A stretch of DNA of 42,348 bases, taken from IMG/VR virus record IMGVR_UViG_3300043411_001400, positions 1 through 42,348 of that record, one strand, 5' to 3'. Positions 20,005-40,706 of this stretch are shown piece by piece. Positions within the stretch are counted from its first letter, which is position 1, and the number at the start of each line of letters is the position of its first letter. A model generated the notes under the pieces. It made no database searches and was not told the origin of the DNA. It saw only the letters and a program-made list of their open reading frames with translations. Made by a program: the position numbers and the translations under genes. This DNA comes from a virus.

Positions 20005-20049
20005 AAATAATATTTGTATATAAAACTAATATTTTTATATACAAATATG
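20005..20049 (+). promoter_or_regulatory. Tandem promoter-like motif before the portal gene
   Basis: A full motif (TAATATTT, T, TATATAC, AAA, TATG) ends in the start codon at 20047, and a second half-copy (TAATATTTGTATATA) lies about 20 bases upstream. The whole 43-base gap between terL and the portal gene consists of these elements and contains no SD. Confidence 0.55.
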
Positions 20050-22962
20050 TCAAAATCAGGTGATTATTTAAAAGCTAAGTATGGATCAGAGACAATTACA
20101 CCAAATGTAATAAAAAGTGTATCTCAGTATAGAAGGGGTGAAATAGAAGAATCTCTTCAAACAACATATCCACACAGTGCGCAATCTTCTTCATATACAA
20201 CGGCAACAAGTTTAAAGAAAAACGCTCAAGTCTCATCGAATGGAGGTGGATACAAAGGTACTGGCGATTCAGCTAATCAGGTTCCAAATGTATATTCTCC
20301 ATTATGGCTTGATAGCAATTTAGCATTACCAAGAGATAGAGCAACGATAAATGCTTGGCTTCGTGCATTTTATGCATTGAATCCATTTGTGCATAACTCT
20401 ATTAATTTACATTCAACTTATCCAATTAGTAAATTAAATATAAAATGTAAAAACAAGAAGATAGAGAATTTCTTTAATGATATGTGTGAAGAAATTGATC
20501 TAATGAATGTTTGCGTCCAGATAGCACAAGAATACTGGCTATTAGGTGAAGCATTTCCATTTGTTGAATTAGATGAAGAGAAATTAAAATGGAGTAGGAT
20601 AACAATATTAAATCCTGATTATATGATTCTTAAGAGGACAGTAATTGAAGACGAGCCTCTTATTATGATGAAGCCAGATCAGAATCTTAAAACAATTGTT
20701 ACATCGAATAAAGCCGCTGATATTGAACAGAGAAAACAGTTAAATCCATATATTGTTAATTGTGTACTTAAGGGTCAGAACATACCATTGGATAATTTTC
20801 AAGTTTCACATCTTGCAAGAAGAATTTCTCCATACGAAAACAGAGGAACTGGATTACCAGTTTGTATTTTTCGTCAACTTTGTTTGCTTGACAAGTTAAG
20901 GGAATGTTATGATGAAGATACAGAAGTCCTAACACAAAATGGATTTAAGAAAATAAACGAAATTCTTGAATTTACTACCAACCAAAATGATAAAATTGTT
21001 GGTCATTTTAATGGTCTAAATGTAAAATTGCAAGACGATATAAAAATAGCTTGTTATGACGAAGCTACAGATTCTATAAAATATCAATCTCCAAATAATT
21101 TTACATTGGGAAATTATTCTGGCGAAATGTATCATTTTTCTGGAAATAAAGTTGATGTTAAAGTTACCCCCAATCATAAAATGTATTTTAGAGAAAAATT
21201 ACAAAAAAATTATAAAGGATATTACTCAGATTTTCAAGCGGGTTCGGCAGAATATATTGCGTCAAAGAAGAAATATTTCAAATTTAAAACACTTGCAAGA
21301 TTCGAAGATGGTATTACTCCAGAGTATACTAAAGTACTTGGCACTAATATTCCAACAAAATTATATCTAAAAGTACTAGGCTATATTCTATCGGAGGGAT
21401 GTGTATATCAAAATTATGATAAGAAAAGATATGATAATTCAATAAGTATTTCGCAAGCAACTGATTCAGATTGCTACGAGGACATCAAGAATTCATTTAA
21501 TGAATTTGGAAATTTATTATCATTAAAAGTTCATAATAAAACATCAGACAAAACAGATAAAAATAAAGAAAAATGGGAGGGTAGAATTGGTAGTAAAGAT
21601 TTAACAAATTATTTTATTAAAGAATTAAGCTATGATTTGAATAAAAAATGTAATTCTTTTAATAAAAAAATACCAAGACAAGTATTTAATTATAAAAAAG
21701 AAGATATGAAGATTTTACTGGATGCATTAGTAAAAGGTGATGGCAATGAAAATGTTAGTAAATACGGTACCGATACCATAGGATATTCATATTGCACTGT
21801 ATCTAAACAATTATGTGAAGACGTTTACGAATTAGTTTATAAATGTGGATATTTACCTAATATAGTAACACATCTAAGAAAAACTAAAAATGATCAAAAA
21901 GAATATTATGTTACTTGGTCAAATTGTTCATATGGCGACGAACCCATTTTAAATATTGGTGGGTCATTACGTAATAAGAAAAATAATGGTGCTGATGTAA
22001 AAAAAGTAAATTATGAAGGTGCAGTTTGGTGTTTTGAGGTTCCAACAGGTTATTTTGTTACTAGAAGAAATGACAAGATTACTATTCAAGGAAATTGTAA
22101 ATTTGCTCAAGCTGATAATATGATTAATCCATTAACTGTTGTTAAGATAGGTAATGATAATTATAAACCAACTCCTGATGTATTAGAATCATGGAGGCAA
22201 TTATTTGAAGCCGCTCAGTATAATAAAGATTTTAAGATTTTCACAAATGAAGCTGTAGATATTTCTGCTGTTGGTAAGGGTGCTGCAATATATGATACAT
22301 CTGGTGATGTTACTCAATTGATAAAAGAAATATTAATTGGTTTACAAGTTCCATCTGTATTAATGGATGGTGGATCTGATACTACATATGCTAATGGTGG
22401 TGTTGCATTAGATGTACTAAGACAAAGATATATGCAATTTAGAAACATGTTAGCTTCTTGGTTAAAGAGAAAGATATTTGCACCAATATCAAAAATGAAT
22501 GAATTTTACGAATATCAAGATAAAGAAAAAGTTCTAATAATACCAGAAGTTGATTGGAATCACATGTCATTATTTGATGCTGGTGATTATATTCAAAATC
22601 TAGTTGGGCTAACAACTGGTGGTGAAGAAGGGAAAAGAGTAGCAGTTCAAGAGCTACATAGAAGTATGGGTTTAGATTACAATGATCAGTTAAGAAAGAT
22701 AAAGAAAGAAAATATTTCAAATGCTATTTTAAAGAAAGAGCAAATAGCATTGGATGCAATGACATTAAGTGAGCTTAGGGCATTAACAGAAGAAGATGAA
22801 ATTCAAGAAAAGGAAGGACAACAAGAAGCTAAGGCAGGTGAAGAGGGTGGTGGAGGATTACCAGGAATGCCTGGATCAGATTTTGGTCCACCAGATTTAG
22901 GTGCTCCACCATCTCCTGGACCTTCTGAACCACCTCCTTCACCAGAGCCACCAAAACCCTGA
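20047..22962 (+). CDS. Portal protein, interrupted by an in-frame intein
   Basis: 971 residues as translated. The ATG at 20047 ('MSKSGDYLKAKYG') is preferred to a TTG at 20014 that lies inside the promoter motif. Removing the intein (20905-22095) leaves 574 residues, a normal portal size. N-extein features include 'NAWLRAFYALNPFVHNSINL', typical of portal crown/wing helices. The C-extein has 'EILIGLQVPSVLMDGGSDTT' and 'LRQRYMQFRNMLASWLKRKI', as in phage portals. The C-terminus is a Gly/Pro-rich tail ('GAPPSPGPSEPPPSPEPPKP'). It forms the dodecameric DNA entry ring that docks the terminase encoded just upstream. Confidence 0.88.
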   Translation: MSKSGDYLKAKYGSETITPNVIKSVSQYRRGEIEESLQTTYPHSAQSSSYTTATSLKKNAQVSSNGGGYKGTGDSANQVPNVYSPLWLDSNLALPRDRATINAWLRAFYALNPFVHNSINLHSTYPISKLNIKCKNKKIENFFNDMCEEIDLMNVCVQIAQEYWLLGEAFPFVELDEEKLKWSRITILNPDYMILKRTVIEDEPLIMMKPDQNLKTIVTSNKAADIEQRKQLNPYIVNCVLKGQNIPLDNFQVSHLARRISPYENRGTGLPVCIFRQLCLLDKLRECYDEDTEVLTQNGFKKINEILEFTTNQNDKIVGHFNGLNVKLQDDIKIACYDEATDSIKYQSPNNFTLGNYSGEMYHFSGNKVDVKVTPNHKMYFREKLQKNYKGYYSDFQAGSAEYIASKKKYFKFKTLARFEDGITPEYTKVLGTNIPTKLYLKVLGYILSEGCVYQNYDKKRYDNSISISQATDSDCYEDIKNSFNEFGNLLSLKVHNKTSDKTDKNKEKWEGRIGSKDLTNYFIKELSYDLNKKCNSFNKKIPRQVFNYKKEDMKILLDALVKGDGNENVSKYGTDTIGYSYCTVSKQLCEDVYELVYKCGYLPNIVTHLRKTKNDQKEYYVTWSNCSYGDEPILNIGGSLRNKKNNGADVKKVNYEGAVWCFEVPTGYFVTRRNDKITIQGNCKFAQADNMINPLTVVKIGNDNYKPTPDVLESWRQLFEAAQYNKDFKIFTNEAVDISAVGKGAAIYDTSGDVTQLIKEILIGLQVPSVLMDGGSDTTYANGGVALDVLRQRYMQFRNMLASWLKRKIFAPISKMNEFYEYQDKEKVLIIPEVDWNHMSLFDAGDYIQNLVGLTTGGEEGKRVAVQELHRSMGLDYNDQLRKIKKENISNAILKKEQIALDAMTLSELRALTEEDEIQEKEGQQEAKAGEEGGGGLPGMPGSDFGPPDLGAPPSPGPSEPPPSPEPPKP
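20905..22095 (+). mobile_element. Intein with LAGLIDADG homing endonuclease, inserted in the portal gene
   Basis: 397 residues, in frame. Splice block A starts at Cys1 ('CYDEDTEVLTQNGFKKINEI'). Block B is 'VDVKVTPNHKMYF', with the T..H motif. The two LAGLIDADG helices are 'LKVLGYILSEG' and 'ILLDALVKGDG', whose acidic residues bind metal. Blocks F/G are 'AVWCFEVPTGYFVTRRN' and 'ITIQGN', ending in Asn followed by Cys+1 of the C-extein (22096). The usual penultimate His is replaced by Gly, as in a number of phage inteins. Self-splicing would join '..LDKLRE' to 'CKFAQADN..'. Both endonuclease motifs look intact, so homing may be active. Confidence 0.92.
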
Positions 22963-27547: not shown

Positions 27548-30500
27548 ATGTTTAAAAAATTTGGCGAATCTACAAAATGCAAGATAGAGGAATCTGATTC
27601 TTGCACTTCTTTTATAAACGAAACAATATTAAACGAATTTAAAAAAACAGCTAAAGAATTAAAAATATTAGCTCCTTCTTCAGAAGATTTTCTTTATTTT
27701 TCTACAATTATGATGCACGCTGCCGAATCATCTGCAATAAATGATGATGGTACACCAAAACTAACAAAATCCGGTGAAACTGTAAATGTTGGTTGGGACA
27801 CAAGCGAAGGGACATGGAAGTGGAAAACTAATGATCCCACTATAAAACCATATAAAAATGCTAACGGCGATATTTTCCCTGAGAAAGAGCTAGTAACAGC
27901 ACATAAATTATGGATTAGTAAACCATTGTGTATAGATCATAAATCTTCTTCTGTAGACCATGTGCGTGGTTACATAGTTGATACTTATTATGATAGAGAG
28001 CTAAAAAGAGTTGTTGCTTTGTGTGCATTGGATAAAAAGAATTATCCTGATTTAGCTCATAAGGTATCTGCTGGAATTACACCAAATGTATCAATGGGTA
28101 CTGGTGTATCAATGGCTGTATGTACAGAACATGGTTGTCATAAAGTTGCAAGAGTTGAACAAGACTTTTGTAAGCATATGAAAGCAAAGTCAGGATACGG
28201 TGAAATTAACATAGGATTAAATCCAATTGAGTTATCAATTGTTGTTAATGGAGCTGACCAGAAGGCTAAGATAAAGCATATAATCGCCGCTGCAAATGCG
28301 CTAAATAATTATGTTGAAATGAAAGAGAATCAACTAAATAAATTAGCAAAAGAGAATTTTTCAGCTTCTCTTAATTATAGTAATGATGGAGTTGAAGGAT
28401 CAAAATCAGCTGGTGGATCTATTAATTTTAATACAAACTCAATTGAAGAGTTTAAGGCAGAGCTTGAAAAAGCACTAGAACAACTAGAATCAATTTCAAA
28501 AGAAGAAGTTGAAATAGAAAAAGAAATGAGTAAGGATTCTGGTGATGCTGGTAATAATAATGAATCTGATTCAAATACGGATTTCAATATTGCGGCTCCT
28601 GGACAAAAATTGGCAAGCAAAGATAGTTTAGAGTTGAGCGCAGAGCTTGAAGAAGCAAAGAAAGCAATAGCTTCACTAGAAGGCAAGCTAGAGAATCTAA
28701 AAAACAATTTTAACCAAATGTTAAATAGGGATGAAATGTCTGAATTAAAAAAGAATAGCTATTATCAAGGTACAGTAGAGCCAACCCCAGGCAAGCCACA
28801 ATATGCCAGAGAACCAGAAAACGAAAAACTTCGTGAAGATGGTGATAGACATATGCAAGTTGATGATCTAGGTGGCACTGAAGGTATGCACCCAGGCGTT
28901 AAAAGCGTCTCTATGTCTGAACTAGAACGAAAGAAACTATTAGCAAGAGCTGAGTCAGAAGAACGCGCAATGAGGAGAAACGCAATATTGGAAAATGCAA
29001 AAAAAGCCCTAAAAACTGAAGCATACTATCAAGGTGGTGGTGGTGTTAATGAACCAACTCCAGGTAAACCAAAATATCCAGTAGACAAAACAAATGTTGA
29101 TCTAAGAGATGATGACAAACATATGAATGGTCAAAAACCATTTCCAGATGTTGGCAGCGTTGATGGATTACATCCAAGTCCTTCTTCAGTTCAACAAAAA
29201 GATGAACTAAAAAGAAAAGAAATGCTTCATCGCGCTGGTCTAGAAGGTAAGTTTGTTAAAGTTACCAATGCTAATGGCTCAGTAAATTTTGATAAGACAG
29301 CTTGGGAAATATATAATGATGGCTCCCTAATACTAAAAGCTTCAGTACATGAACTAACAGGCGGAAGATCAGATCTATTCTATGATTCGATTGCTACAAA
29401 AGAATTCGGCAAAAGCCTCATTTCAAAAATTAAAGTTGAAGGATCAGATTCAGTTGCTAGACTATATAAATCAGCTCAAGAAATGCCAGTTCCTCCAGCT
29501 CCTCCAGCACCACCCGCAGACGGTGGACAACCACCAATGGATATGCCACAAGATCCAAATGCAATGCCAGCCACACCAGAACAAGATCTAAGCGATCCAA
29601 AGACAAAAGCCCTAGTATTATCAGAAGAAGTTAGAGATAAATCTTCAGATTTACATGAAGCTGTTAAAGCACTAGCAGGCGAAAAAGACGAAATAGGTGC
29701 TGCTGATCAAGCTACCAAGTCAGCTTCCTTTACACTAAAAAGACTACAAGCTAGCAGAAAAGAAATAAATGAAGAACTAATTTCAGCATTTAAAGAATGC
29801 ATTGCTAATCTAGATGACCATTCAAAAGAACTAGATATGGTAAATGAAATATGCGGAAGAAAAATAGCTAAGACAGTAGACTCAAATTTTGTTAACTATA
29901 TGAAAGATGAATTTGATGTTGTTTTCAAAGAAGCAAAAGCTTCACTAGACAATGCAGACGAGCTAATCGGCGCATTTGTTAGATATGCAAGAGGAACAGA
30001 TTATCTAGTCAAGCAAGCTCAACTAGAAGGATCAGAATCCGTTGATGCTCTAGGTGAATCATCTGGAGAATCTGAAACAGTTGAATCAGCAATCCAATCA
30101 GCACTAGAAGATGTTGGTGGTGCAGAGGATCTAGATATGTCTTGGGATGCATCTGATGCAGATGATAAAGACAAAGATGATGAAGACGATTGTGACGCAG
30201 ATGATAAAGAAAAAGATGACGAAGACGATTGCGATGCAGATGATAACGATGCAGACATTACGGCTACAAAGGAAGAATTAGCGAAAGTAAAAGCAAACCC
30301 AGGTGACAAAGTGACAGTAAAAGCTTCATTAGCAACAAGAGAAGGAAGAGATGCTCTAAGAGCAAAACTAGCAGCTGACACTCTAAAGGTTAGCCCACTA
30401 TTACACGATGCACATCCAAAAGGTGGCACTGTAATGATCAAAGATGTATCAGATAATCTAGGTAAAGTTGAAGATCTAGAAGAAATACATGATGTAATGA

Positions 30501-31036
30501 TGGATGTAGCCAAGGCTCCAGTTAAAGTTAGAAAAGAAGCTGAAACAATCAGAGCACTAGTTGCTGAAGGTTCAATAACAGAAGAAGACTTCCCAAGCCT
30601 AATAGCTGAAGGTGTTGATAAGGCTGCAATTGAGTATTACAAGAAATATTGGGCAGATTCAGATAAAGAAGGAAAAGAATTTGCTGCTGCTCTAGTAAGC
30701 GACGTAAAGAAATCAAAAGCAAGTGATGATTTCGAGGCTGAAAAAGTAAAACTATCAAGAGCCTATGAACTAGCTTATGAAATGGTTTCAAAGGGTCTAT
30801 GTGGAAGCGATAGAAAATCAATTGGCGAAAAAGTAGCTGAATTGGTTAAGGTTAATGATGATGGTTTTGAAACAGTTAAAAATGTTGTTGCTTCATACAA
30901 GCCAGTTGTAAAAACAGCAATGAGAATTCCATCAGTAGGTCATGTGGATTCACTTGGTGGCGAAAAAGTTGAGAATGAAGATCTAACTTCACAACTATCA
31001 GCAGCTCTATCAAGTGTTTCAAAAAGAATGTTCTAA
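27548..31036 (+). CDS. Prohead-protease-like domain fused to a large scaffold-like protein
   Basis: 1162 residues. Residues 60-250 resemble phage prohead maturation proteases: 'YKNANGDIFPEKELVTAHKL', 'PLCIDHKSSSVDHVRGYIVD' with candidate catalytic H131, and 'VSAGITPNVSMG' with candidate serines S174 and S182. A Cys/His cluster follows (C192, C197, C208, H210), then 'IGLNPIELSIVVNGAD'. Residues 290-400 are coiled coil. Residues 404-560 hold a duplicated 'YYQG..PTPGKP' unit. A 'WEIYNDGSLILKASVHELTG' domain, a proline linker, long helices, an acidic Asp-repeat, the AHP module (953-992) and a conserved-looking end 'RIPSVGHVDS' follow. It probably acts as scaffold and processes head proteins, possibly itself. 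The N-terminal protease call is by pattern and not certain. Confidence 0.7.
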   Translation: MFKKFGESTKCKIEESDSCTSFINETILNEFKKTAKELKILAPSSEDFLYFSTIMMHAAESSAINDDGTPKLTKSGETVNVGWDTSEGTWKWKTNDPTIKPYKNANGDIFPEKELVTAHKLWISKPLCIDHKSSSVDHVRGYIVDTYYDRELKRVVALCALDKKNYPDLAHKVSAGITPNVSMGTGVSMAVCTEHGCHKVARVEQDFCKHMKAKSGYGEINIGLNPIELSIVVNGADQKAKIKHIIAAANALNNYVEMKENQLNKLAKENFSASLNYSNDGVEGSKSAGGSINFNTNSIEEFKAELEKALEQLESISKEEVEIEKEMSKDSGDAGNNNESDSNTDFNIAAPGQKLASKDSLELSAELEEAKKAIASLEGKLENLKNNFNQMLNRDEMSELKKNSYYQGTVEPTPGKPQYAREPENEKLREDGDRHMQVDDLGGTEGMHPGVKSVSMSELERKKLLARAESEERAMRRNAILENAKKALKTEAYYQGGGGVNEPTPGKPKYPVDKTNVDLRDDDKHMNGQKPFPDVGSVDGLHPSPSSVQQKDELKRKEMLHRAGLEGKFVKVTNANGSVNFDKTAWEIYNDGSLILKASVHELTGGRSDLFYDSIATKEFGKSLISKIKVEGSDSVARLYKSAQEMPVPPAPPAPPADGGQPPMDMPQDPNAMPATPEQDLSDPKTKALVLSEEVRDKSSDLHEAVKALAGEKDEIGAADQATKSASFTLKRLQASRKEINEELISAFKECIANLDDHSKELDMVNEICGRKIAKTVDSNFVNYMKDEFDVVFKEAKASLDNADELIGAFVRYARGTDYLVKQAQLEGSESVDALGESSGESETVESAIQSALEDVGGAEDLDMSWDASDADDKDKDDEDDCDADDKEKDDEDDCDADDNDADITATKEELAKVKANPGDKVTVKASLATREGRDALRAKLAADTLKVSPLLHDAHPKGGTVMIKDVSDNLGKVEDLEEIHDVMMDVAKAPVKVRKEAETIRALVAEGSITEEDFPSLIAEGVDKAAIEYYKKYWADSDKEGKEFAAALVSDVKKSKASDDFEAEKVKLSRAYELAYEMVSKGLCGSDRKSIGEKVAELVKVNDDGFETVKNVVASYKPVVKTAMRIPSVGHVDSLGGEKVENEDLTSQLSAALSSVSKRMF
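28757..29240 (+). repeat. Internal tandem duplication in the protease/scaffold gene
   Basis: Two diverged units of about 65-75 residues: copy 1 from 28757 (SYYQG, EPTPGKPQY, LREDGDRHM, GMHPG, ERKKLLARA) and copy 2 from 29021 (AYYQG, EPTPGKPKY, LRDDDKHM, GLHPS, LKRKEMLHRA). The order of landmarks is identical. The divergence shows an old duplication kept by selection. Confidence 0.85.
30158..30247 (+). repeat. 39-base acidic tandem repeat
   Basis: About 2.3 copies of a 39-base unit starting at 30158, 30197 and 30236, coding for 'ADDKDKDDEDDCD', 'ADDKEKDDEDDCD' and 'ADDN'. The units differ mainly at third positions. The result is a poly-acidic linker with one Cys per unit inside the protease/scaffold protein. 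Confidence 0.85.
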
Positions 31037-31045
31037 AATAAACCA

Positions 31046-31086
31046 ATGAATGGGGAGATTATGTCTCCCCATTCATCAACATTTTT
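31046..31086 (+). terminator. Strong hairpin after the scaffold gene; possible attenuating terminator or mRNA 3' stabiliser
   Basis: ATGAATGGGGAGA (31046-31058) pairs perfectly with TCTCCCCATTCAT (31064-31076) around a 5-base loop. The T5 run begins 5 bases after the stem, which is not ideal for termination, so partial read-through into the 31103 gene is likely. Confidence 0.6.
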
Positions 31087-31102
31087 AAAAGGTTAATAAA
31101 CT

Positions 31103-31708
31103 ATGAAAAAAAACGAAATTTCAGATATGCTTGCAGAAGGGATGAATACTTACCTAGAAAGTCCAGAATTTAAGTTCTTATTTAGAAAAGCTGATTTAGA
31201 TCTAGAAACTCCAGTTGAAGAGCTAGATGGTTTAGGTGGTGGTTCTGAATCAGTTGATGATGTTGCTGGTGCTAGCTCACTAGATGATCTAGATCTAGAA
31301 CAAGAACTAAATGATCTAGGAACAGAAGAAGCTGGTCCATCAGATCCATTAAGCGAAGAACTAAGCGAATATTCAGCTAATTCAAATATGGCTGTAGATG
31401 GTTTACTATCTGCTTCAGCAGCTCTAGATGAACTAGGTGCAGTTCAAGCTTCAGCAGATTTACTAAAACTAGCATCTATGGTTGTAGAAGCCAAGAAAAA
31501 GAAAGTAAAAGAAGTTGAAGATAAGAAAAAAGGTAAAGACAAGAAAGAAGAAAAAGAAGAGAAGAAAGCCAAAGAAAAAGCTAAGAAAGACGAAGCTGAT
31601 GCTCGTGATAAGAAAATGAAAGAAAAAGAAAAGAAAGCCAAAGAGAAAGAAAAAGAAGAAGAGAAGAAAGCTAAAGAAAAAGCAAAAAAAGAAAAGGCTA
31701 AAAAATAA
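31103..31708 (+). CDS. Hypothetical protein with acidic middle and Lys/Glu repeat tail
   Basis: 201 residues with a weak AAGG ribosome-binding site. Residues 30-95 are acidic ('SSLDDLDLEQELNDLGTEEA'). Residues 99-131 form the recurring two-helix segment ('SASAALDELGAVQASADLLK'). Residues 131-201 are almost only Lys, Glu, Ala and Asp, with 'EEKKAKEKAKK' occurring twice, predicted as a single long charged helix. Leucines near the start of the gene are mostly CTA, as in other putatively abundant proteins here. It may be a scaffold or internal head protein. No family is recognised. Confidence 0.6.
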   Translation: MKKNEISDMLAEGMNTYLESPEFKFLFRKADLDLETPVEELDGLGGGSESVDDVAGASSLDDLDLEQELNDLGTEEAGPSDPLSEELSEYSANSNMAVDGLLSASAALDELGAVQASADLLKLASMVVEAKKKKVKEVEDKKKGKDKKEEKEEKKAKEKAKKDEADARDKKMKEKEKKAKEKEKEEEKKAKEKAKKEKAKK

Positions 31709-32265
31709 TGTTTAAAGAGGATAGCTTTGAGGAAGAACTATATTCTTCCATGAAGAAAAATTTAACTAGTAACTCTAAAACTGAAGATTTAAAGGTTAGA
31801 GCAAGCAACCTTAAAGTTATCCAATCTTTAAATTTTGTTGCTGAGATACTAGAGAAAAATAAATTCACTAAACAAGCTGAAGCAATAACTTCTTTCATGG
31901 GTAAAAGAATTGGTCTTAAAAATGTGCTAAGTTCTTTTCAAGATAAAGAATTCATAGAAAGGCTAGATAAAGATACTTCAGATATAATAAGCTTTCATTT
32001 CAAAAATGCCGGCATAGATAGCTCTAAATTTATAAATAAAAAATACTTTAATGAATATGAGCAGCTATTGGATGTTAAGTATTCAAGAGCAAGCAAGCCA
32101 AGTATGACATCTGAAAAACCACCAGTATTATATAAAGGTGAAATTTACAAAGATAATAAATATTTAGAGAACATAAAAAACATAATAGCTAATTCAACAA
32201 AAAATCAAGAGATAGATGGCGCTGATAATATTAGTGTCACATCAGAAGATTTTGAAGACGAATAA
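31708..32265 (+). CDS. Small hypothetical protein
   Basis: 185 residues, coupled to the previous gene by TAATG. Residues 38-68 ('IQSLNFVAEILEKNKFTKQA' and on) match the recurring two-helix segment. The C-terminal part is polar and ends acidic ('NISVTSEDFEDE'). It is the last gene before a strong terminator. No family is recognised; it is possibly an assembly protein. Confidence 0.6.
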   Translation: MFKEDSFEEELYSSMKKNLTSNSKTEDLKVRASNLKVIQSLNFVAEILEKNKFTKQAEAITSFMGKRIGLKNVLSSFQDKEFIERLDKDTSDIISFHFKNAGIDSSKFINKKYFNEYEQLLDVKYSRASKPSMTSEKPPVLYKGEIYKDNKYLENIKNIIANSTKNQEIDGADNISVTSEDFEDE

Positions 32266-32291
32266 TAAAATCTAGTATTCTTAACTTTATG

Positions 32292-32317
32292 GGAGCGATA
32301 CACTCGCTCCTTTTTTT
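32292..32317 (+). terminator. Rho-independent terminator
   Basis: GGAGCGA (32292-32298), a TACAC loop, TCGCTCC (32304-32310), then seven T residues. This is a canonical intrinsic terminator ending the 27548-32265 transcription unit. Confidence 0.92.
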
Positions 32318-32336
32318 ATTTAATAAAAGTATATAA

Positions 32337-32362
32337 AAGTAATATTTATATATACTTTTATG
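32337..32362 (+). promoter_or_regulatory. Putative phage promoter, motif copy (leaderless start)
   Basis: Identical over 26 bases, bar one position, to the motif at 1242-1267: TAATATTT, A, TATATAC, TTT, TATG. It sits 20 bases after the terminator T-run, and its final ATG starts the 32360 gene. An extra ATATAAAAG lies just upstream. There is no SD. A promoter is required here because the upstream unit is terminated. Confidence 0.65.
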
Positions 32363-33049
32363 TTCAAAACAATATTTTATGGTAAAGCTATGCCATATAG
32401 CTTTCCTTTAGATCCAAGCGTAGAATTTTTACCTGGAATGGTAGCACAGTTAACAGTTATTGGTGGTCAGCAAATGGCTACTGTATCTGATGGAACTGCG
32501 CCTATTGGTATTATAGATGATATTAGGACAAGAAGCTTTACGGCTGTATCTTGGAACGAAGTAATAATAGTTCCTGCTAGTGGTTCTTTTAATGGTGCTC
32601 AGTATGTAAGTGTTACTGACATAAACGCTCCATTGGCACATCCAAGTATAATAGCGGGAAGTTTTACATCTACTGTTAGGGCTGTATTAAATCCAAATAA
32701 TGGTATTCTTACATTTTTAACTGGAACTCCGTTGAACTATGACTTGACCGGATCTGGTATACCCAATGCTATTAAGGCTGTAGTTAATTATACATATAAC
32801 ATTCCAAACATTCCGGGCGATGACTCAACAATGGGCTCTGGGAAAGTTACAGTTTGGTATGAGCGGTTTATGTTTGAGACAGCGCAATTCGAGACAAATT
32901 GTAGTTATGCAATGAATGCAAATTTATATGTTTCAGAAAAGGGATTTTTAACATCTAGGAAACCTTCTAAATATCATCCATCAGTTGGTATGGTTATTAA
33001 TCCACCAAATCCAATTGGCAACAGCATGTTACAAGTATTATGGTGGTAA
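32360..33049 (+). CDS. Beta-rich probable virion protein, related to the 40032 product
   Basis: 229 residues with no SD, starting on the promoter-like motif. Strand-rich throughout, with a 'TAPIGIIDDIRTRSF' segment seen in decoration-type phage proteins. The C-terminal part has 'MGSGKVTVW' (about 158-166), 'NANLYVSEKGFLTS' (186-199), 'VGMVINP' and a final 'MLQVLWW'. The same landmarks occur in the same order in the 40032 protein (GSGKVTCW, LYATSAGLLTP, VGMVTAL, VVLHF). It is probably a capsid decoration or tail-tube-type beta-sandwich; the exact role is unknown. Confidence 0.65.
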   Translation: MFKTIFYGKAMPYSFPLDPSVEFLPGMVAQLTVIGGQQMATVSDGTAPIGIIDDIRTRSFTAVSWNEVIIVPASGSFNGAQYVSVTDINAPLAHPSIIAGSFTSTVRAVLNPNNGILTFLTGTPLNYDLTGSGIPNAIKAVVNYTYNIPNIPGDDSTMGSGKVTVWYERFMFETAQFETNCSYAMNANLYVSEKGFLTSRKPSKYHPSVGMVINPPNPIGNSMLQVLWW

Positions 33050-33090
33050 TAGGATATAATCTTATATTTGTATTAAAATGAGGATATTCT

Positions 33091-34431
33091 ATGACCTATA
33101 AGAATATAAAATTTTCTGAATCTGATGTAATGAAAGAGTTTGAGAAAATAGCTTTAGACAAAAAAATAATACAGCCTAAGATAAAAAAGAAAGCTTCAAA
33201 AATAGAGATTTCTGCAAATCTTGATGTTAATATTTGTAATTTGATAAACAAATTATCAGAGTCGGGGAATTTTAGTTTAGCTGAAGAAGTTAGATCAAAT
33301 TTTCTTGAGTACAAGAAAGCACAAGTAGAAGATGCAAAAAATGAACTAAAGATGAAGAAACTTGCTTCAGAAGTAACAAATGATATGAAGAGGTTTTATG
33401 ATTCAGCGCATCCAGAGGGAAGTGTTAAGGTGGATGATGATTCAGAAAGCGTTGTTGAAGATTTGTATGATAGCCATGATGCTATTATGAAGATTGTTAA
33501 TAAAGTTAATCTAAAAAAAAAAGCTAACTTAATTAAAAAAGCAAATGATCCAGAATATTATGAAAAGAAAGTAAATGCTATTCTTAATCAAATGTATTCT
33601 TTGATTTCATCAGAGATAAGTAAGATTCAGGCTGCTAAAGATTCTAATATTTACAGCGATTCTGAAAAATCAAGTAAAAAAAATGAAGCTCTTACCAATA
33701 GAGCTATGCAATTTTTATCTAGAGTAAAAAATATAACAAATACTTTTGGTGGATTGGGTAGTGGATTTGTTGCTTCAAATATAACAGACCCAATAACTCA
33801 AGAATCTATAGGGTCAAAAATTACAACAATAATAAATCAAGTACATGGTTTATATAATTTCAATGATCCTGAAGTTAGTACGAAATTCCCAGATGTAGCT
33901 AGAAATATACAAAATATAATAGAGTCCTCTAAAATAAAATTGAATCAAGTTGTTGCTGAATCAAATAAATCTGGAAACAATACGGTAAATCTTGGTGAAT
34001 TTAATACAAATAGCCCTGACCATTCTGTTGTAACAGATTTAGGCGAAGTTAATGTTCAGTCTACACCTGAGTCTAATAAAATGTATAGCGTATTAAATAG
34101 TTGGACCATGACTAACAAAACATTAAAAGCATCCATTAATCAAGCAAGACAGCGATTAAATTCAATAATTGAGGAAGATAATAGTGAAGATGCTGAATGG
34201 GTAACAAAATCAGAAGAATATATCAATGCTTTGTTTTCAGATGCTAGTAAGATAGATTCATTACTAAATACAATAGCTAATGAAGCTTATGATGATGATA
34301 ATCAATCTAGAGTTCATGGGGCTTTAAATGATTTTGGTTTTTCAGGTGAAGCCTTGAATGATTTCAATAATCTATTAGGATTTAGAAAAGCAGTTAATGA
34401 AGCCAAGGCAAATTTAGGGGCAATAAAATGA
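33091..34431 (+). CDS. Hypothetical protein carrying the AHP module
   Basis: 446 residues with TGAGGA before the ATG. Residues 47-77 are a recurring two-helix segment ('ICNLINKLSESGNFSLAEEV'). Residues 90-145 hold the AHP module ('KLASEV', 'SAHPEGSVKVDD', 'VVEDLYDSHDAIMKIVNK') also found in the 27548 and 38722 proteins. The rest is helical and Asn/Ser-rich ('FLSRVKNITNTFGGLGSGFV'), ending 'NEAKANLGAIK'. There are no catalytic motifs. It overlaps the next gene by ATGA. Probably an internal head or virion protein. Confidence 0.65.
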   Translation: MTYKNIKFSESDVMKEFEKIALDKKIIQPKIKKKASKIEISANLDVNICNLINKLSESGNFSLAEEVRSNFLEYKKAQVEDAKNELKMKKLASEVTNDMKRFYDSAHPEGSVKVDDDSESVVEDLYDSHDAIMKIVNKVNLKKKANLIKKANDPEYYEKKVNAILNQMYSLISSEISKIQAAKDSNIYSDSEKSSKKNEALTNRAMQFLSRVKNITNTFGGLGSGFVASNITDPITQESIGSKITTIINQVHGLYNFNDPEVSTKFPDVARNIQNIIESSKIKLNQVVAESNKSGNNTVNLGEFNTNSPDHSVVTDLGEVNVQSTPESNKMYSVLNSWTMTNKTLKASINQARQRLNSIIEEDNSEDAEWVTKSEEYINALFSDASKIDSLLNTIANEAYDDDNQSRVHGALNDFGFSGEALNDFNNLLGFRKAVNEAKANLGAIK

Positions 34432-36161
34432 TTGATAGAGATATAATCGATAGAATTAAAAATGCTCAAAAAGTTACTTTTCCTGGAGGAAGAGGTGGAT
34501 CAAAAGCTCCAGGTAAATCTCAAGGCACTCCTAGTGCATCAACTAAACCATCACAAAATAAAACCACTAATCAATCTCAATCAAAAACTGCCATAAAACA
34601 AATGCAAACTTCTATGATAGCATTTAGAACTGCATTCAATCAATTGGCTATTGGTTCTAATGAAGTTGGTAGAAGATCTACTGGTGAAAATTTAGATAAT
34701 AGCAAACCTGACTCCAAATTAGATTTAATTGATGATAAAATAAGATCTGTAAAAACAAAATTGTTTAATGATCCAGAAAACAAACAATTAAAAGCAGAAT
34801 TAGATTCATTAGATAGTGAGAGATATTCTATAGCTAATAAAAAGGGTCCAGAGAAACAAACAAAAGATGTTCATGGCTTACGCCCAATTGGTCAGATTCT
34901 TCTAAATGATTATATTGGAAAAGATACATTACAAGGAATGACTTTTGCTGATGTAGATATGAAACAACCAGGAAGAATGGGGCAAGGAACTGGCGCGCAG
35001 GATAATGTTAGTTTCGTTGGGGTAATAGATTCAATTGGTAGAGTTGGAACTCCTGTTGATAGACAAAAAACCAAACAAGAACTAGATCTAGAAAAACAAA
35101 TAGCACAGTTAAATGATAGAATAACAAAAGAATCTAGAACATCACAAGCTATAAATTCCGCCAAGACACAATTAGCAAAAGAATATTCTCAATCTAAGGG
35201 TACGCAAGTAACTCCAGCATCTATTCCACAACAAGAAGCTGAATCTAAATCATTTGAAATGGTTAAGGCAAAATATAAACCACAATCTTTAAAGTTAAAT
35301 CAAAGCTTAAGTCAAGCCACTAGATTTGCTGTACAAGATCAGCCAGATAAGCCAGGTGAAGAAAAAGAAGATGGTATATGGGATGTCAGAACAAATAATT
35401 CATTGAAAAACATAGCTGGTATTACTCAAGGTGTACTAGGATTTTCTAAAGATATGGAAATCAATGTTCCTGGGTATACCCAATCAAATCTAGAATCATT
35501 CAAGAGCGGAATACCAGATGATCCAGAATTACTAAGATCTGAAGAACTACAACCTGGATACGAGTCTAGCATAACAAAACTATGCAATGCTTTAACTGCT
35601 CACATCAAAGCCCAAGCTAGGTATATTGAGTTGTTAAGAAAAAATCTTTTTGAAAATCCAGAATATCAAAGTTTCATGAAGCAAGAGAAATCTTTATTTG
35701 ATTTTAATAAGACAGATCAAGAAGGTATGAATAAAAAACATGAGCAAGATAGAAATAATCAAGTGAGTAATGAAAGAAATCCAACATCTGAAATGGATAA
35801 TGATACTGCTGAGTATTACTCAAATCATAAATTTAAATTTGACTCAAATTATCATGGTGCAGGTATTCAGGTAGGAATAAATAATAAACAATGGATAGTA
35901 AGGTTTCAAGATTTAGACTCAGTTACTTCTTTTGAAAATCTATATAAAAGAATAAATGGTGGAAATGAACCAACAAAAGAACAAATGCTTGAGTTCTATA
36001 ATCAAATAAACAATTCCATACAGCAATTTAACCAAAGTAAAGATTATCTAGCGCCAGTGGATGAACCATTAACTCAATCAGTGCCATATAGAGTTAAGGT
36101 TCCTTCTAAATTACCATGGGATAGGACTGAAACTAGATATAAAACCGTACCTAAAAATTAA
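34428..36161 (+). CDS. Large hypothetical, probably virion protein
   Basis: 577 residues, ATGA-coupled. A low-complexity Gly/Ser/Thr/Gln/Lys N-terminus (about 18-60) is followed by coiled coil ('KTKQELDLEKQIAQLNDRIT'). 'EKEDGIWDVRTNNSLKNIAG' near residue 320 resembles the DG.WG..T..AL core of peptidoglycan-binding repeats but lacks the full pattern. A C-terminal alpha/beta region follows ('GAGIQVGINNKQWIVRFQDL'). The function is unknown; the wall-binding resemblance is only a hint. Confidence 0.6.
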   Translation: MIDRDIIDRIKNAQKVTFPGGRGGSKAPGKSQGTPSASTKPSQNKTTNQSQSKTAIKQMQTSMIAFRTAFNQLAIGSNEVGRRSTGENLDNSKPDSKLDLIDDKIRSVKTKLFNDPENKQLKAELDSLDSERYSIANKKGPEKQTKDVHGLRPIGQILLNDYIGKDTLQGMTFADVDMKQPGRMGQGTGAQDNVSFVGVIDSIGRVGTPVDRQKTKQELDLEKQIAQLNDRITKESRTSQAINSAKTQLAKEYSQSKGTQVTPASIPQQEAESKSFEMVKAKYKPQSLKLNQSLSQATRFAVQDQPDKPGEEKEDGIWDVRTNNSLKNIAGITQGVLGFSKDMEINVPGYTQSNLESFKSGIPDDPELLRSEELQPGYESSITKLCNALTAHIKAQARYIELLRKNLFENPEYQSFMKQEKSLFDFNKTDQEGMNKKHEQDRNNQVSNERNPTSEMDNDTAEYYSNHKFKFDSNYHGAGIQVGINNKQWIVRFQDLDSVTSFENLYKRINGGNEPTKEQMLEFYNQINNSIQQFNQSKDYLAPVDEPLTQSVPYRVKVPSKLPWDRTETRYKTVPKN

Positions 36162-36172
36162 TTATCAATCTT

Positions 36173-36188
36173 AACTTATATAGTTATG
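36173..36188 (+). promoter_or_regulatory. Possible TTATATAG element before the 36186 gene
   Basis: The 24-base gap after 36161 contains AACTTATATAGTTATG, with the ATG of the 36186 gene three bases after TATATAG and no SD. This is a degenerate relative of the TATATAC motif. The similar strings AAGTTATATAG (8238 region) and AACTTATATC (2851) precede other genes. Confidence 0.3.
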
Positions 36189-37652
36189 GATTTTATAAGA
36201 AAAGATAAAGATTTATACAATATATTAACAAAATTAGGTCAACAAGCCGAATCTGGTGGGTTAGATCCTAATAAAAATGCAAAGGTTCTCCAGGTTTTAT
36301 CTAAAAATTTAGGAGAAGCTTTGCAATCTTATGTTCCTCCCAAGCCATCAACACAAGAAGGATTTCATGGAGGGGATAAAGAAAATCCTAACCCAAAACT
36401 TTATCTTGAATCTCTACAAACAGATATTGATTTTCTTGATTATTTAAGCTTTGCAAACATTAAACATGGATCAACTCAATTAGTTTATCTAAATGGTATG
36501 TTACCAGAAACAATAGATAAATCTGAATACGTCAAGTATCCAAAACCAAAAGATAATCAAGGTAAAGAATTTAAATACTGGATACATAAAAGATATATTA
36601 GATATCTATTGGAAGATTTACAAAGCTCTGGTCAAAGTAATAAGTTGCTAGCAACTAGAGTTGGTAAATTAATCAAACAATTTAGTGATAACTCTGGCGA
36701 ATCATTTGATCCAGCTGATAAATCTGGTCAATCACAGCAAATTGATGCTCTTCCAAAATTAATAAACCCAGAGAATCCAATGGAGCAGGGAAATATTTAT
36801 TTGTTTACTACAGATTTAAAATCAGATAATGATTTTAATGATTGGCTTAACCGAGCGCAATTACAATTAGCTAAAGGTGGTAAAAATGTTCCAGTTGCAG
36901 ATATGAATAATATTTGTGACTTTATTTCATACCTATATCGTAGAGCTTATAATTACGCAAATCTATCTGGAAATAATAAAGAGAGAATTGGGCTTGGTCA
37001 GTATTATGCAAAACAAATATATAGCATTGCCCAAACACATTCTTGCCCCATCGGTAAACCAGCTGGTCAACCTAATCAAGGAGGTTCGCCAGATAAAGAT
37101 AAACAACAAGGCGGTCGCGAGGGTCTAACTGATAATGAAGTCGTTGCCCAACTACGAAGCATAGTGCCTAATCTTCCACTAAATACTAGAACAATAGATT
37201 TTAGGAAAATATCTGAATGGGCTTTACTAATAAATAGAGTATTACCAAAACAAGAGCAATTCCCTACTGGTGATATGGATGGATTAAGGGAAAATATAGT
37301 AAACTATTTAAAATCCGGAGCTAATCCAGCAGGTTACCAATATGATTTAAGCAAATCACCTGATGATGTTCTAGCTTTATTAAAAGAGCCCGGACAATCA
37401 CTTAAGTTTCTTTCTTTATTAAGACAACTTGTTGATAATGTAGCTGAATCAGTGCAACAAATAATAAGCGTATATGGATCTAAACTAGAAGCAGATCGTC
37501 AAGCATATCAATACATACTAAATCAAGTCGGACATGATGCAAGCTCATATTCAATTGCTCAACAAAACAAAACACGCTTATCAAGCGTAATGAGAAGCTT
37601 ACAATCCACTTTACCAAGGTATATGCAGCAAATGCAACAAAAAGGTAAATAA
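36186..37652 (+). CDS. Hypothetical, probably virion protein
   Basis: 488 residues. It is helical, with an aromatic-rich central region ('ESLQTDIDFLDYLSFANIKH', 'FKYWIHKRYIRYLLEDLQSS', 'NICDFISYLYRRAYNYANLS'). A Gly/Gln/Asp/Lys linker follows near residue 300, and the C-terminal helical domain ends 'LPRYMQQMQQKGK'. No catalytic motif is seen. It starts without SD, and its stop overlaps the next ATG (TAATG). It forms a tight group with 34428, 37652 and 38722, perhaps internal or tail proteins. Confidence 0.6.
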   Translation: MDFIRKDKDLYNILTKLGQQAESGGLDPNKNAKVLQVLSKNLGEALQSYVPPKPSTQEGFHGGDKENPNPKLYLESLQTDIDFLDYLSFANIKHGSTQLVYLNGMLPETIDKSEYVKYPKPKDNQGKEFKYWIHKRYIRYLLEDLQSSGQSNKLLATRVGKLIKQFSDNSGESFDPADKSGQSQQIDALPKLINPENPMEQGNIYLFTTDLKSDNDFNDWLNRAQLQLAKGGKNVPVADMNNICDFISYLYRRAYNYANLSGNNKERIGLGQYYAKQIYSIAQTHSCPIGKPAGQPNQGGSPDKDKQQGGREGLTDNEVVAQLRSIVPNLPLNTRTIDFRKISEWALLINRVLPKQEQFPTGDMDGLRENIVNYLKSGANPAGYQYDLSKSPDDVLALLKEPGQSLKFLSLLRQLVDNVAESVQQIISVYGSKLEADRQAYQYILNQVGHDASSYSIAQQNKTRLSSVMRSLQSTLPRYMQQMQQKGK

Positions 37653-38695
37653 TGTATACAAAAATAAATTTCATAAATGATACATTGTTAATCGAATCAT
37701 TTAGTACCAATAAAATGGTTAAACAAGCTCAATCAATGCCACCATATGTTGGTTCGGTTATGGACTCTGTTACCAGTTATGTAAATAAAGAATTTGCAGG
37801 TGTAGATAAAACAAAAGCTGTTGTTAATTTATTAGCACCAGGAACGGTTTTCTTTATTTTAAATGCTGCTGGATTAACATGGATAGGGTTACTTGCTGGT
37901 CTTTTGATGCGTATGTTTAAGTTTGACGCATCAAAAGCAATTGATTCATTAAGATCAAAAATAATGTCTAAGGTTTCATCTGGTGAGAAATTTACTTCTA
38001 ATGAAGTAAAATCATTAGTTGATTCAGTTATTCCATCAATGCAATCAAGTGAGCCAAAGTTAGAAACAACTTCTAGTGAAATAAACGAAATAATAAAATT
38101 AGCTTATTCTTCAGAATCGTTGAAAGATATATTGGACAAAGCTCAAGAAGCAATAAAAGGTAAATCTTATAAGCAAGGCGTAATAATGAGGTTGTTTAGA
38201 ACAGTATTATCTTGGTTTGCAATTATAGCATTAGCTTCCACTGGATTCATGGTTGCAGGAGATGGAATAGCTTCTTTGGTAAATAAAGGAAAAGAAATAA
38301 TATCACCAGGATCTCAACCAGTATTCCCAACCAAACCAGAGAAAACTGAACAAGTATTACCAAAACTACCAACAGGAAAGCCAGTACAACCACAGTCTAG
38401 ATTTACAATAAATCCAAGATATACAGAAGAAAATTATCAAGGCAAAATCTGGCAAGTTAATAAACCAAATACTACCAACAATATAATAAATACTATATTT
38501 GATTATATTGAAGACGTATACCCTGAGCTAGCAAAGAAAGAATCTGAAGTATCTAATACACCAGGATTTAAAGCTATGTTGGAACATATCAAAGAATACA
38601 ATGATGACATTAAAGGATCTAATCTATTCTTTATGCCACCTAATTATAAGTCAAAAAAACAAATTGCAGATCTTATAGTTAAAGATCTAGTATAA
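37652..38695 (+). CDS. Hypothetical membrane-segment protein, possibly virion-internal
   Basis: 347 residues, TAATG-coupled. There are two hydrophobic stretches: residues 57-88 ('AVVNLLAPGTVFFILNAAGL' and on, long enough for one or two helices) and 184-203 ('TVLSWFAIIALASTGFMVAG'). Between and after them are soluble helical regions and a Pro-rich linker ('FPTKPEKTEQVLPKLPTGKP'). No signal peptide precedes the first helix. Candidates are an ejection or pore-forming virion protein; a holin is less likely at this length and place. Confidence 0.6.
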   Translation: MYTKINFINDTLLIESFSTNKMVKQAQSMPPYVGSVMDSVTSYVNKEFAGVDKTKAVVNLLAPGTVFFILNAAGLTWIGLLAGLLMRMFKFDASKAIDSLRSKIMSKVSSGEKFTSNEVKSLVDSVIPSMQSSEPKLETTSSEINEIIKLAYSSESLKDILDKAQEAIKGKSYKQGVIMRLFRTVLSWFAIIALASTGFMVAGDGIASLVNKGKEIISPGSQPVFPTKPEKTEQVLPKLPTGKPVQPQSRFTINPRYTEENYQGKIWQVNKPNTTNNIINTIFDYIEDVYPELAKKESEVSNTPGFKAMLEHIKEYNDDIKGSNLFFMPPNYKSKKQIADLIVKDLV

Positions 38696-38721
38696 TATTC
38701 ACCAATAATTATAGGTTAACA

Positions 38722-39954
38722 ATGAGTAATTACGTCCTAGAGAATTATATTAAGATGGCAGAAGAAAGAGAAACAAAAACAACAAAGCTTTATAAAAAAC
38801 AAGAAGAAAAAAACATAGTGGATGAAGCGCATCCTGAAAAGGCTATTGTTCAAAATTCTTATGATTCTATCCAAGGCTTGGTTGAGAATGTAAATGAACA
38901 ACAAAAAATACTATTAAATATAGTTAATAAAAAACCTGATGGTCAGCTATCGAATAAAAAATATTCTGAAACGAAATTAGCTTTATCTTTGCTTAAAGTT
39001 GCTAATACTACTAACAATGAAGACTTAAAAACATTAGCTGAAACCTGCAACGAGCAAATAAAAAAAAAAGCATCGTGGGCACTAGTTGGTAAGATAGCAT
39101 TATGGGGCATCCCAACTTTGATATCCCTAATCTATGCCCAACAACATCTTCCAGGTATACATGAGGGGCTTATCATAAGCCATAAAGAACTAATAGAGTC
39201 ATTAGATGATCTACTTGCATCGGATGATTCTAATCCATTATTATATGGAGCTAGCTATAGTACCGAGTTAATTAAATTATGCAATGAATTAAAAGTAAAC
39301 GCAAATAATCTAAAAGAAAAATTTGATTTGGTTGTGCAATTTGTATCCAAGATACAAAAACCAAAAGATGGTCAATCAGCAATTGATATTTTAGAAAATG
39401 AAAAATTTAAAAATGGCGTCGAATCTTCTTTCAAAGAATTTGATGAGTTGAGAACAAAATTAATACCAACTTTTACAGAAAAAGCCAAATTATTCTCAGA
39501 TAAAGCATTTAAAGCAATGAATGTGAAAGATAAAGGCTTTTTAACTAAAAAAATAGATAACACCCACGTATTAAGTGGCGGATTTGGTTTACTTAAAGAT
39601 AAGTTTGATGAAGTTTCTAAATCATTAGAGAAGTTTAACAAATCTCTTTACTCTATAGATAAATTATCTTTCACTGTTTCAGAAACAGCATCACAAGTTC
39701 AAGCCAAACTAGAATCAGCAGGAAACAAAACCCCTGATCAGTCAGGTCAAGTAAAATTAACCCCTCAAGAAGAAGCTGAGTTGAAAGATAAACTAAAAAA
39801 AGATATTACAACTGATATGAAGAAAAGGTTTGGATTAGATGAACCAGAAAAAACAACTAAACCAACAACTCCTACAGCTAAAAAACCAATTCCACAAAAA
39901 TCATTAAAAGAAATAGTTGATAGAATACATTATGGCGAACCACCAACATTATAA
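38722..39954 (+). CDS. Hypothetical protein with AHP module and one membrane segment
   Basis: 410 residues with weak SD (AGG). The AHP module is near the N-terminus (residues 34-72: 'DEAHPEKAIVQNSYDSIQGL', 'ILLNIVNKKPDG'). A two-helix segment follows (86-118, 'LALSLLKVANTTNNEDLKTL'), then a single membrane-like stretch at 119-139 ('WALVGKIALWGIPTLISLIY'). The remainder is helical and charged, with a Lys/Thr/Pro C-terminus. Co-occurrence of the module with the protease/scaffold protein suggests incorporation into the head. The function is unknown. Confidence 0.6.
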   Translation: MSNYVLENYIKMAEERETKTTKLYKKQEEKNIVDEAHPEKAIVQNSYDSIQGLVENVNEQQKILLNIVNKKPDGQLSNKKYSETKLALSLLKVANTTNNEDLKTLAETCNEQIKKKASWALVGKIALWGIPTLISLIYAQQHLPGIHEGLIISHKELIESLDDLLASDDSNPLLYGASYSTELIKLCNELKVNANNLKEKFDLVVQFVSKIQKPKDGQSAIDILENEKFKNGVESSFKEFDELRTKLIPTFTEKAKLFSDKAFKAMNVKDKGFLTKKIDNTHVLSGGFGLLKDKFDEVSKSLEKFNKSLYSIDKLSFTVSETASQVQAKLESAGNKTPDQSGQVKLTPQEEAELKDKLKKDITTDMKKRFGLDEPEKTTKPTTPTAKKPIPQKSLKEIVDRIHYGEPPTL

Positions 39955-40031: not shown

Positions 40032-40706
40032 ATGTCTCTAAAACCACTATCAGCCCAACAACCACTAGGTCAATTTGACGGTGTTGACTCAGAACTAACT
40101 TCACTAAAAGGTGGAGAAGTTGTTACCGTAACTTCAGTTGCTACAACTGGATCAAGTTTAGACAAAGCTGCCCCAGATGCTTTTGATGGATACATGATAC
40201 CATCACTAGTTCAAAAAAGACCAGCTATCACCAAGACACTAACAGCCGGTAAAAAACCACTATGGCTAGCCGATGAAGGTATTACTGGTTATGGCACCAT
40301 CCTAGGTTCTCTAGTAGGTGGAACAGTAGGTCAATCAGTATCAGGAACCGTTTTCGGACCTCATACAACTTCAGGTTCAGGCAAAGTTACATGCTGGAAT
40401 CAACCCGGTCTATACGCAGTATCAGTAGACGCAGTTGACACCACAGTTTCAACAGGTCTAATCGTATCAAATACATCACTAGATGCTGGTTCAGCTCTAT
40501 ATGCAACTTCAGCTGGTCTATTAACCCCCACAGTTGGTTCAGCTTTTGAAAGCGTTGTTGTTGGTAGATTCCTAGAATTCGCCACAAACGGTTCACTAGT
40601 AACTTCAAATGTCGGCATGGTTACAGCCCTAAATTCACCTTCAGGTGCAACTGATCCAACAAGATCACCAACATTCGTAGTTCTACACTTCAATCCAGCT
40701 GTCTAA
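40032..40706 (+). CDS. Beta-rich, probably abundant virion protein, related to the 32360 product
   Basis: 224 residues with AGGAAA before the ATG. It is rich in Gly, Ser, Thr and Val, as in beta-sandwich virion proteins, with few Lys/Glu compared with its neighbours. Landmarks GSGKVTCW (115-122), LYATSAGLLTP (156-166) and VGMVTAL near the C-terminus match those of the 32360 protein. Of 22 leucines, 20 use CTA and 2 use TTA, unlike the neighbouring genes, which suggests high expression. It is a single-gene unit with its own terminator. A decoration protein or other major structural subunit is likely; it is rather short for an HK97-fold capsid protein. Confidence 0.7.
   Translation: MSLKPLSAQQPLGQFDGVDSELTSLKGGEVVTVTSVATTGSSLDKAAPDAFDGYMIPSLVQKRPAITKTLTAGKKPLWLADEGITGYGTILGSLVGGTVGQSVSGTVFGPHTTSGSGKVTCWNQPGLYAVSVDAVDTTVSTGLIVSNTSLDAGSALYATSAGLLTPTVGSAFESVVVGRFLEFATNGSLVTSNVGMVTALNSPSGATDPTRSPTFVVLHFNPAV

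What the first reader, a model, noticed from the sequence alone, without database searches (positions are those of the whole stretch)
27548..39954. A shared 'AHP' module in three different proteins
The 27548 (residues about 940-1004), 33091 (about 90-150) and 38722 (about 34-72) proteins share AHP followed by K/E, then a Val/Asp-rich strand, VED or VEN, a helix with H or Q pairs, M or L, and a V-x-K ending. The first two also share an upstream KLA and a downstream basic helix. The hosts otherwise differ: a protease/scaffold fusion, a soluble helical protein and a membrane-segment protein. A plausible meaning is a head-targeting or scaffold-docking tag, or a processing site for the prohead protease.
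Basis: partly seen in the sequence, partly recalled or inferred. Interest (0 to 1): 0.75.

Follow-up and report, generated by a model that had tools for sequence, protein, structure and literature searches.

The report
Shared docking module in huge-phage head proteins
Three different head-assembly proteins of a huge bacterial virus carry the same short protein module, inherited from one ancestor and kept in exactly these three proteins in every related giant virus genome searched; it is probably a plug that lets them dock onto the same place while the virus head is built.

Summary
The three segments are homologous copies of one ~50-residue module: a helix end, the tripeptide AHP, a flexible loop, then V-E-[D/T/N]-x-x-[E/D], a helix-capping box that opens a ~14-residue amphipathic helix. 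Profiles started from any one segment converge on the same 168 proteins in 80 related contigs, all in three orthologous genes: the protease-scaffold fusion (A) and two proteins (B, C) encoded between it and the major capsid protein. Profile-profile probabilities are 96% (A-B), 97% (B-C) and 66% (A-C), against at most 4.5% for shuffled controls. In 19 huge-phage records (112-459 kb) the module occurs exactly three times. The copies are an old triplication. In B and C the module sits in a conserved N-terminal leader (about 50% identity) ahead of a fast-diverging body (15-25%), which is how a targeting tag looks. No Pfam or PDB relative was found. Most likely it docks B and C where the scaffold docks, on the capsid protein or scaffold core; the precedent is 80alpha scaffold and SaPI1 CpmB. 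Docking is inferred, not shown. The processing-site idea is weaker: the only candidate P1 glutamate is lost in 12 of 151 copies while the helix cap is mostly kept.

The parts
27548..31036 (+). Protein A (1162 aa): prohead protease fused to a scaffold-like remainder; carries module copy A near its C-terminus
   Evidence: PHROG head maturation protease E 2.7e-11; phage G gp19 E 3e-16; 80 loci with full or partial orthologs in huge phages
27644..28261 (+). Protease domain of A (about residues 33-238)
   Evidence: tblastn to phage G gp19 and to Rhodococcus, Gordonia and Burkholderia phage proteases
30383..30556 (+). Module copy A (residues 946-1003; AHP 955-957, V-E-D 974-976, capped helix from 977)
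   Evidence: HMM and hhalign; model of the C-terminal 277 residues puts the helix start right after VED
30725..30892 (+). Helical domain of A after the module (about residues 1060-1115), shared with phage G gp21, which lacks the module
   Evidence: hmmsearch of the A C-terminal profile, phage G gp21 E 3e-8
33091..34431 (+). Protein B (446 aa): helical head-cluster protein
   Evidence: 57 orthologs by its N-terminus; its body (res 161-446) finds no ortholog
33091..33540 (+). Conserved N-terminal leader of B (residues 1-150), about 50% mean pairwise identity against 15-17% for the body
33379..33540 (+). Module copy B (residues 97-150; AHP 106-108, V-E-D 122-124)
38722..39954 (+). Protein C (410 aa): long helices with one hydrophobic segment (about residues 117-140)
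   Evidence: ORF; AlphaFold2 helices; 104 confirmed relatives in viral contigs, 80 fetched
38722..39051 (+). Conserved N-terminal leader of C (residues 1-110), 42-56% identity against about 25% for the body
38800..38970 (+). Module copy C (residues 27-83; AHP 36-38, V-E-N 54-56)

Best explanation
SHOWN: an ancient ~50-residue module was triplicated in the ancestor of a clade of huge, phage-G-related myophages and has since stayed in exactly three head-cluster proteins: the protease-scaffold fusion A (near its C-terminus) and proteins B and C (in N-terminal leaders). INFERRED: it is a shared docking element. An AHP-containing flexible arm plus an N-capped amphipathic helix folds onto a common partner, most likely the inner face of the major capsid protein shell, or else the scaffold core. 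The scaffold's C-terminal region uses it during prohead assembly, and B and C use it to be recruited into the prohead at the same sites, carrying their fast-evolving bodies inside as minor scaffold, internal or ejected proteins. The leaders may later be trimmed by A's protease, but that step is optional in this model.
For: Homology of the three copies. Three groups on the module tree with the fewest possible label changes (A and C fully supported, B weakly), hence an old triplication rather than recent exchange. Exactly three copies in each of 19 records of 112-459 kb. Synteny: in C loci with enough flank, B lies upstream in 49 of 49 and the major capsid protein downstream in 57 of 57. Tag-like conservation: leaders about 50% identical, bodies 15-25%. 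B and C keep AHP whether or not A has lost HP, which fits a common third partner better than an A-B or A-C pairing through AHP. Helix-capping signature in 148 (N-cap) and 141 (N3) of 151 copies. One relative (L079) has three tandem copies in B, as expected of a self-contained binding unit. Precedent: 80alpha scaffold and SaPI1 CpmB share a helix-and-hook RIIK motif that binds the same capsid-protein cleft (PMC5644958). The domain after the module in A is homologous to the separate phage G protein gp21, which lacks the module, so the module is an addition to, not a necessary part of, that domain.
Against: No direct evidence of binding, of the partner, or that B and C are in the virion. The structure predictions give only low confidence over the AHP loop (pLDDT about 34-55), and no complex could be modelled. 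In A the AHP part has decayed in most orthologs, so the A copy may no longer do the same thing. The scaffold role of A outside the protease is inferred from position and the fusion, not shown.
Confidence: 0.5

Rival explanations
1. Processing signal: the module, or the leader containing it, is recognised and cut by the prohead protease, as with the long N-terminal propeptides of phiKZ-like phages; the cut would be after Glu in V-E|[D/T/N] or close by.
For: One carrier is the protease itself; prohead proteases of giant phages cut C-terminal to Glu, and their N-terminal propeptides are mostly 111-254 residues long (SPN3US, PMC10052503), similar to the 110-150 residue leaders of B and C; VE is nearly invariant.
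Against: Glu is missing in 12 of 151 distinct copies (8 of 51 in B), replaced by M, H, P, L or D, while the helix cap is kept in 10 of them; the residues before it are variable and do not fit the SPN3US S/A/G-x-E rule; conservation extends ~25 residues beyond it into a helix; only three proteins carry it, and the major capsid protein does not.
Confidence: 0.2
2. Mutual assembly module: the copies bind each other (hetero-oligomer of A, B and C) and build the internal core, rather than binding a separate partner.
For: Homologous copies in three genes of one cluster, an amphipathic helix, and tandem copies in one relative.
Against: AHP is lost from A in most genomes while B and C keep it regardless; no sign of joint change.
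Confidence: 0.2
3. Remnant of gene duplication without a shared present function: a structural element (capped helix) kept for folding in each host protein separately.
For: The three copies have diverged into separate groups with different downstream signatures.
Against: In B and C the module is about as conserved as any other part of the protein (53-56% identity) while the bodies are free to change; AHP is kept at 88% or more in B and C.
Confidence: 0.08
4. Chance resemblance of charged helical segments.
For: The window-only E-values are modest (1e-5 to 9e-3).
Against: Convergence of HMMs from each seed on the same three ortholog groups; shuffled profiles never exceed 4.5% against 66-97%.
Confidence: 0.01

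Closest known systems
80alpha scaffolding protein SP and SaPI1 CpmB (shared RIIK helix-and-hook motif)
   Same: A scaffold and a second internal protein share a short helix-plus-loop element; there it binds the same cleft of the capsid protein (PMC5644958).
   Different: That motif is C-terminal, about 16 residues, and shared between a phage and its satellite; this module is ~50 residues, sits in three proteins of one phage, internal in A and in N-terminal leaders of B and C, and sequence similarity to RIIK was not seen.
T4 capsid targeting sequence and giant-phage (phiKZ, SPN3US) N-terminal propeptides
   Same: N-terminal leaders on head proteins that can target them into the prohead core, associated with a prohead protease (PMC10052503).
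   Different: SPN3US cuts at S/A/G-x-E; here no such motif is conserved, the carriers are only two head proteins plus the protease-scaffold itself, and cleavage is unknown.
Bacillus phage G head genes (gp19 protease, gp21, gp27 major capsid protein)
   Same: Protease, C-terminal domain of A = part of gp21, major capsid protein of the clade 54% identical to gp27.
   Different: In phage G protease and gp21 are separate proteins, and no module was found anywhere in the 497 kb genome.

Membership tests
HK97/phage-G-type prohead (head maturation) protease, for protein A | Sequence match to known head maturation proteases over the protease domain | tested here: met
   phrog_18299 E 2.7e-11, residues 104-214; phage G gp19 E 3e-16 and annotated maturation proteases
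HK97/phage-G-type prohead (head maturation) protease, for protein A | Position between portal and major capsid protein genes | tested here: met
   Portal at 20014 upstream; major capsid protein downstream of C in relatives
Scaffold-type shared capsid-protein docking motif (80alpha SP / CpmB kind) | Same element in the scaffold and in another head-assembly protein | tested here: inconclusive
   Module present in A, B and C; but that A beyond the protease is the scaffold, and that B and C act in head assembly, is inferred from position
Scaffold-type shared capsid-protein docking motif (80alpha SP / CpmB kind) | Element binds the major capsid protein | not testable with these tools
   No complex prediction or binding data available
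Giant-phage N-terminal propeptide cut by the prohead protease | Conserved S/A/G-x-E cleavage motif in the module | tested here: not met
   P3 is variable and P1 Glu is absent in 12 of 151 copies
Giant-phage N-terminal propeptide cut by the prohead protease | Mature virion protein lacks the leader | not testable with these tools
   Needs virion mass spectrometry
Any Pfam family or solved structure | Significant profile match of the module | tested here: not met
   No Pfam match below E 0.05 in 40 members; best PDB chain E 0.48

The most novel reading that the evidence does not exclude
A single docking module, given once each to the scaffold-protease and to two minor head proteins, lets the three compete for or share the same lattice sites inside the prohead, so that their ratio sets the composition or size of very large (400 kb class) capsids: a within-genome version of the competing-scaffold principle known from phage satellites.
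Probability: 0.2. Interest if true: 0.75.

Novelty: new variant of a known kind. Interest (0 to 1): 0.55.

Why it matters
How huge phages build and fill very large heads is largely unknown, and most of their head-cluster genes have no assigned role. A module shared by the scaffold-protease and two otherwise unassignable proteins ties those proteins to prohead assembly, gives a profile for spotting them in any related genome, and makes a specific, cheap binding test possible. It may also serve as a cargo-loading tag for very large capsids.

Tried and rejected
Close-relative search with protein B alone: no match in isolated phages or viral contigs. Tblastn of the module in isolated phages: only chance hits. 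No relatives of A found in bacterial or archaeal genomes. Other head-cluster families tested by hhalign for hidden copies: none above 1% probability. Helical hairpins before (B) or after (C) the module as a second shared element: not supported. Metal site from the histidines: rejected, because the helix His is N or Q in many copies and HP is lost in many A copies. Recognisable cargo domains in B bodies by Pfam: none convincing. Foldseek of both models: no significant match.

Full report
WHAT THE WINDOW IS. The window is a 42,348-base virus record without a named host. It encodes a DNA polymerase part, UvsX-like recombinase, RuvC-like resolvase and primase, a large terminase subunit and a portal protein, and from 27548 a head-gene cluster. 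Its nearest characterised relative by portal, protease and capsid protein is Bacillus phage G; the clade's major capsid protein is 54% identical to phage G gp27. The major capsid gene itself is not in the window; in relatives it lies just downstream of protein C.

THE OBSERVATION. The three segments exist as described. Using one as query against the window's proteins recovers the others first, with E-values of 1.5e-5 to 9e-3, except that the A segment alone finds B but not C convincingly. This alone would be suggestive; orthologs settle it. An alignment of A with a first relative brought in 80 contigs of related phages, several over 400 kb. In these, iterative profile searches started from the A, B or C segment separately converge on the same 168-169 proteins, all members of three ortholog groups: A 75, B 57, C 37. 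Family-specific profiles align with each other at 96.0, 97.4 and 66.2% probability; 90 shuffled controls stay at or below 4.5%. A caveat: the segments compared had been cut out with a joint profile, but the ortholog groups were defined mostly from regions outside the module (five C members by elimination).

ANATOMY. From 151 distinct copies (alignment): a hydrophobic residue three before the A, A-H-P, a loop of 10-20 residues, V, E, then D, T or N (148 of 151 with S included), two residues, and E, D or Q (141 of 151). The last pattern is a classical helix-capping box (textbook knowledge), followed by an amphipathic helix of about 14 residues; in B and C it ends near K-x-P-x-G. The AlphaFold2 model of A's C-terminal 277 residues starts this helix exactly after V-E-D (window residue 977), with pLDDT about 71-83 in the helix but only about 52-55 in the AHP loop. 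The model of C has the helix but starts it earlier, in a low-confidence stretch. So the predictions agree with a flexible arm plus helix, but they do not establish a fold. HP is dispensable in A (kept by about a third) and nearly invariant in B and C.

DISTRIBUTION. In 19 records of 112-459 kb the module occurs exactly three times each, consistent with A, B and C by the lengths of the open frames, and not in phage G, Rhodococcus phage Finch or Burkholderia phage BcepSaruman. A scan with C alone gave 104 relatives, of which 80 were fetched; B with its module lies upstream in 49 of 49 with enough flank, and the major capsid gene downstream in 57 of 57. Other head-cluster families hold no hidden copy. 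A module tree separates A, B and C with the fewest possible label changes (A and C fully supported, B weakly), so the three copies predate the clade. One relative carries three tandem copies in B. The stretch after the module in A is homologous to phage G gp21, a separate protein two genes after the phage G protease and without the module (E 3e-8); A therefore looks like a fusion of a gp19-like protease and a gp21-like protein that gained the module.

WHY A DOCKING MODULE. In B the leader (residues 1-150) averages about 50% pairwise identity while the rest averages 15-17%, close to background, and the length after the module varies from 9 to 925 residues; in C the leader is 42-56% against about 25%. 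A conserved front end on a freely changing body is what a targeting tag looks like. That the same element sits in the C-terminal part of the protease-scaffold suggests that all three go to the same partner. B and C keep AHP in genomes where A has lost HP, which speaks for a separate common partner. The best precedent is the 80alpha scaffold and SaPI1 CpmB, which share a helix-and-hook motif occupying the same cleft of the capsid protein (PMC5644958). The partner, the binding and the presence of B and C in proheads are inferences.

WHY NOT A CLEAVAGE SITE. Giant-phage prohead proteases cut after Glu (SPN3US: S/A/G-x-E; PMC10052503, motif letters partly from my own knowledge). The only nearly invariant Glu in the module is the one before the helix cap; it is replaced in 12 of 151 copies, including 8 of 51 in B, and 10 of these keep the cap. 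The leaders as a whole could still be removed, since their lengths (110-150) resemble SPN3US propeptides (111-254); no data here decide that.

VERDICT. Real, new, conserved; function inferred. The family has no Pfam or PDB relative. I file it as a new variant of a known kind (shared docking elements of phage scaffolds), not as a member of any tested family.

Noticed in passing
window 20014-22962: The portal gene carries a probable LAGLIDADG intein (about residues 295-707...LREC|YDEDTEV ... TIQGN|CKFAQ); intein-like matches to other phage genes and a weak Pfam LAGLIDADG_3 hit.
   Followed up: partly
L108, L109, L110 (records G009 and G005): The major capsid gene is split into two pieces about 1 kb apart in two huge phages, as by an intron or intein.
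   Followed up: no
records G002, G006, G007, G012, G014: Second, partial major-capsid-like matches far from the main capsid gene.
   Followed up: no
L079:7605-8975: Protein B ortholog with three tandem copies of the module.
   Followed up: partly
window 27548-31036, residues about 405-560: Two imperfect repeats in A (YYQG..EPTPGKP.Y...LR.D.D.HM...G..HP), kept in relatives.
   Followed up: no
window 31103-32265: The two small proteins after A may share a helical hairpin (hhalign 64%).
   Followed up: partly
window 32360-33049 and 40032-40706: Two proteins that look like capsid decoration proteins may be related to each other (hhalign 50%).
   Followed up: partly
L004 (phage G gp21): gp21 shares the C-terminal domain of protein A (E 3e-8), suggesting gp21 is phage G's scaffold-like protein.
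   Followed up: partly
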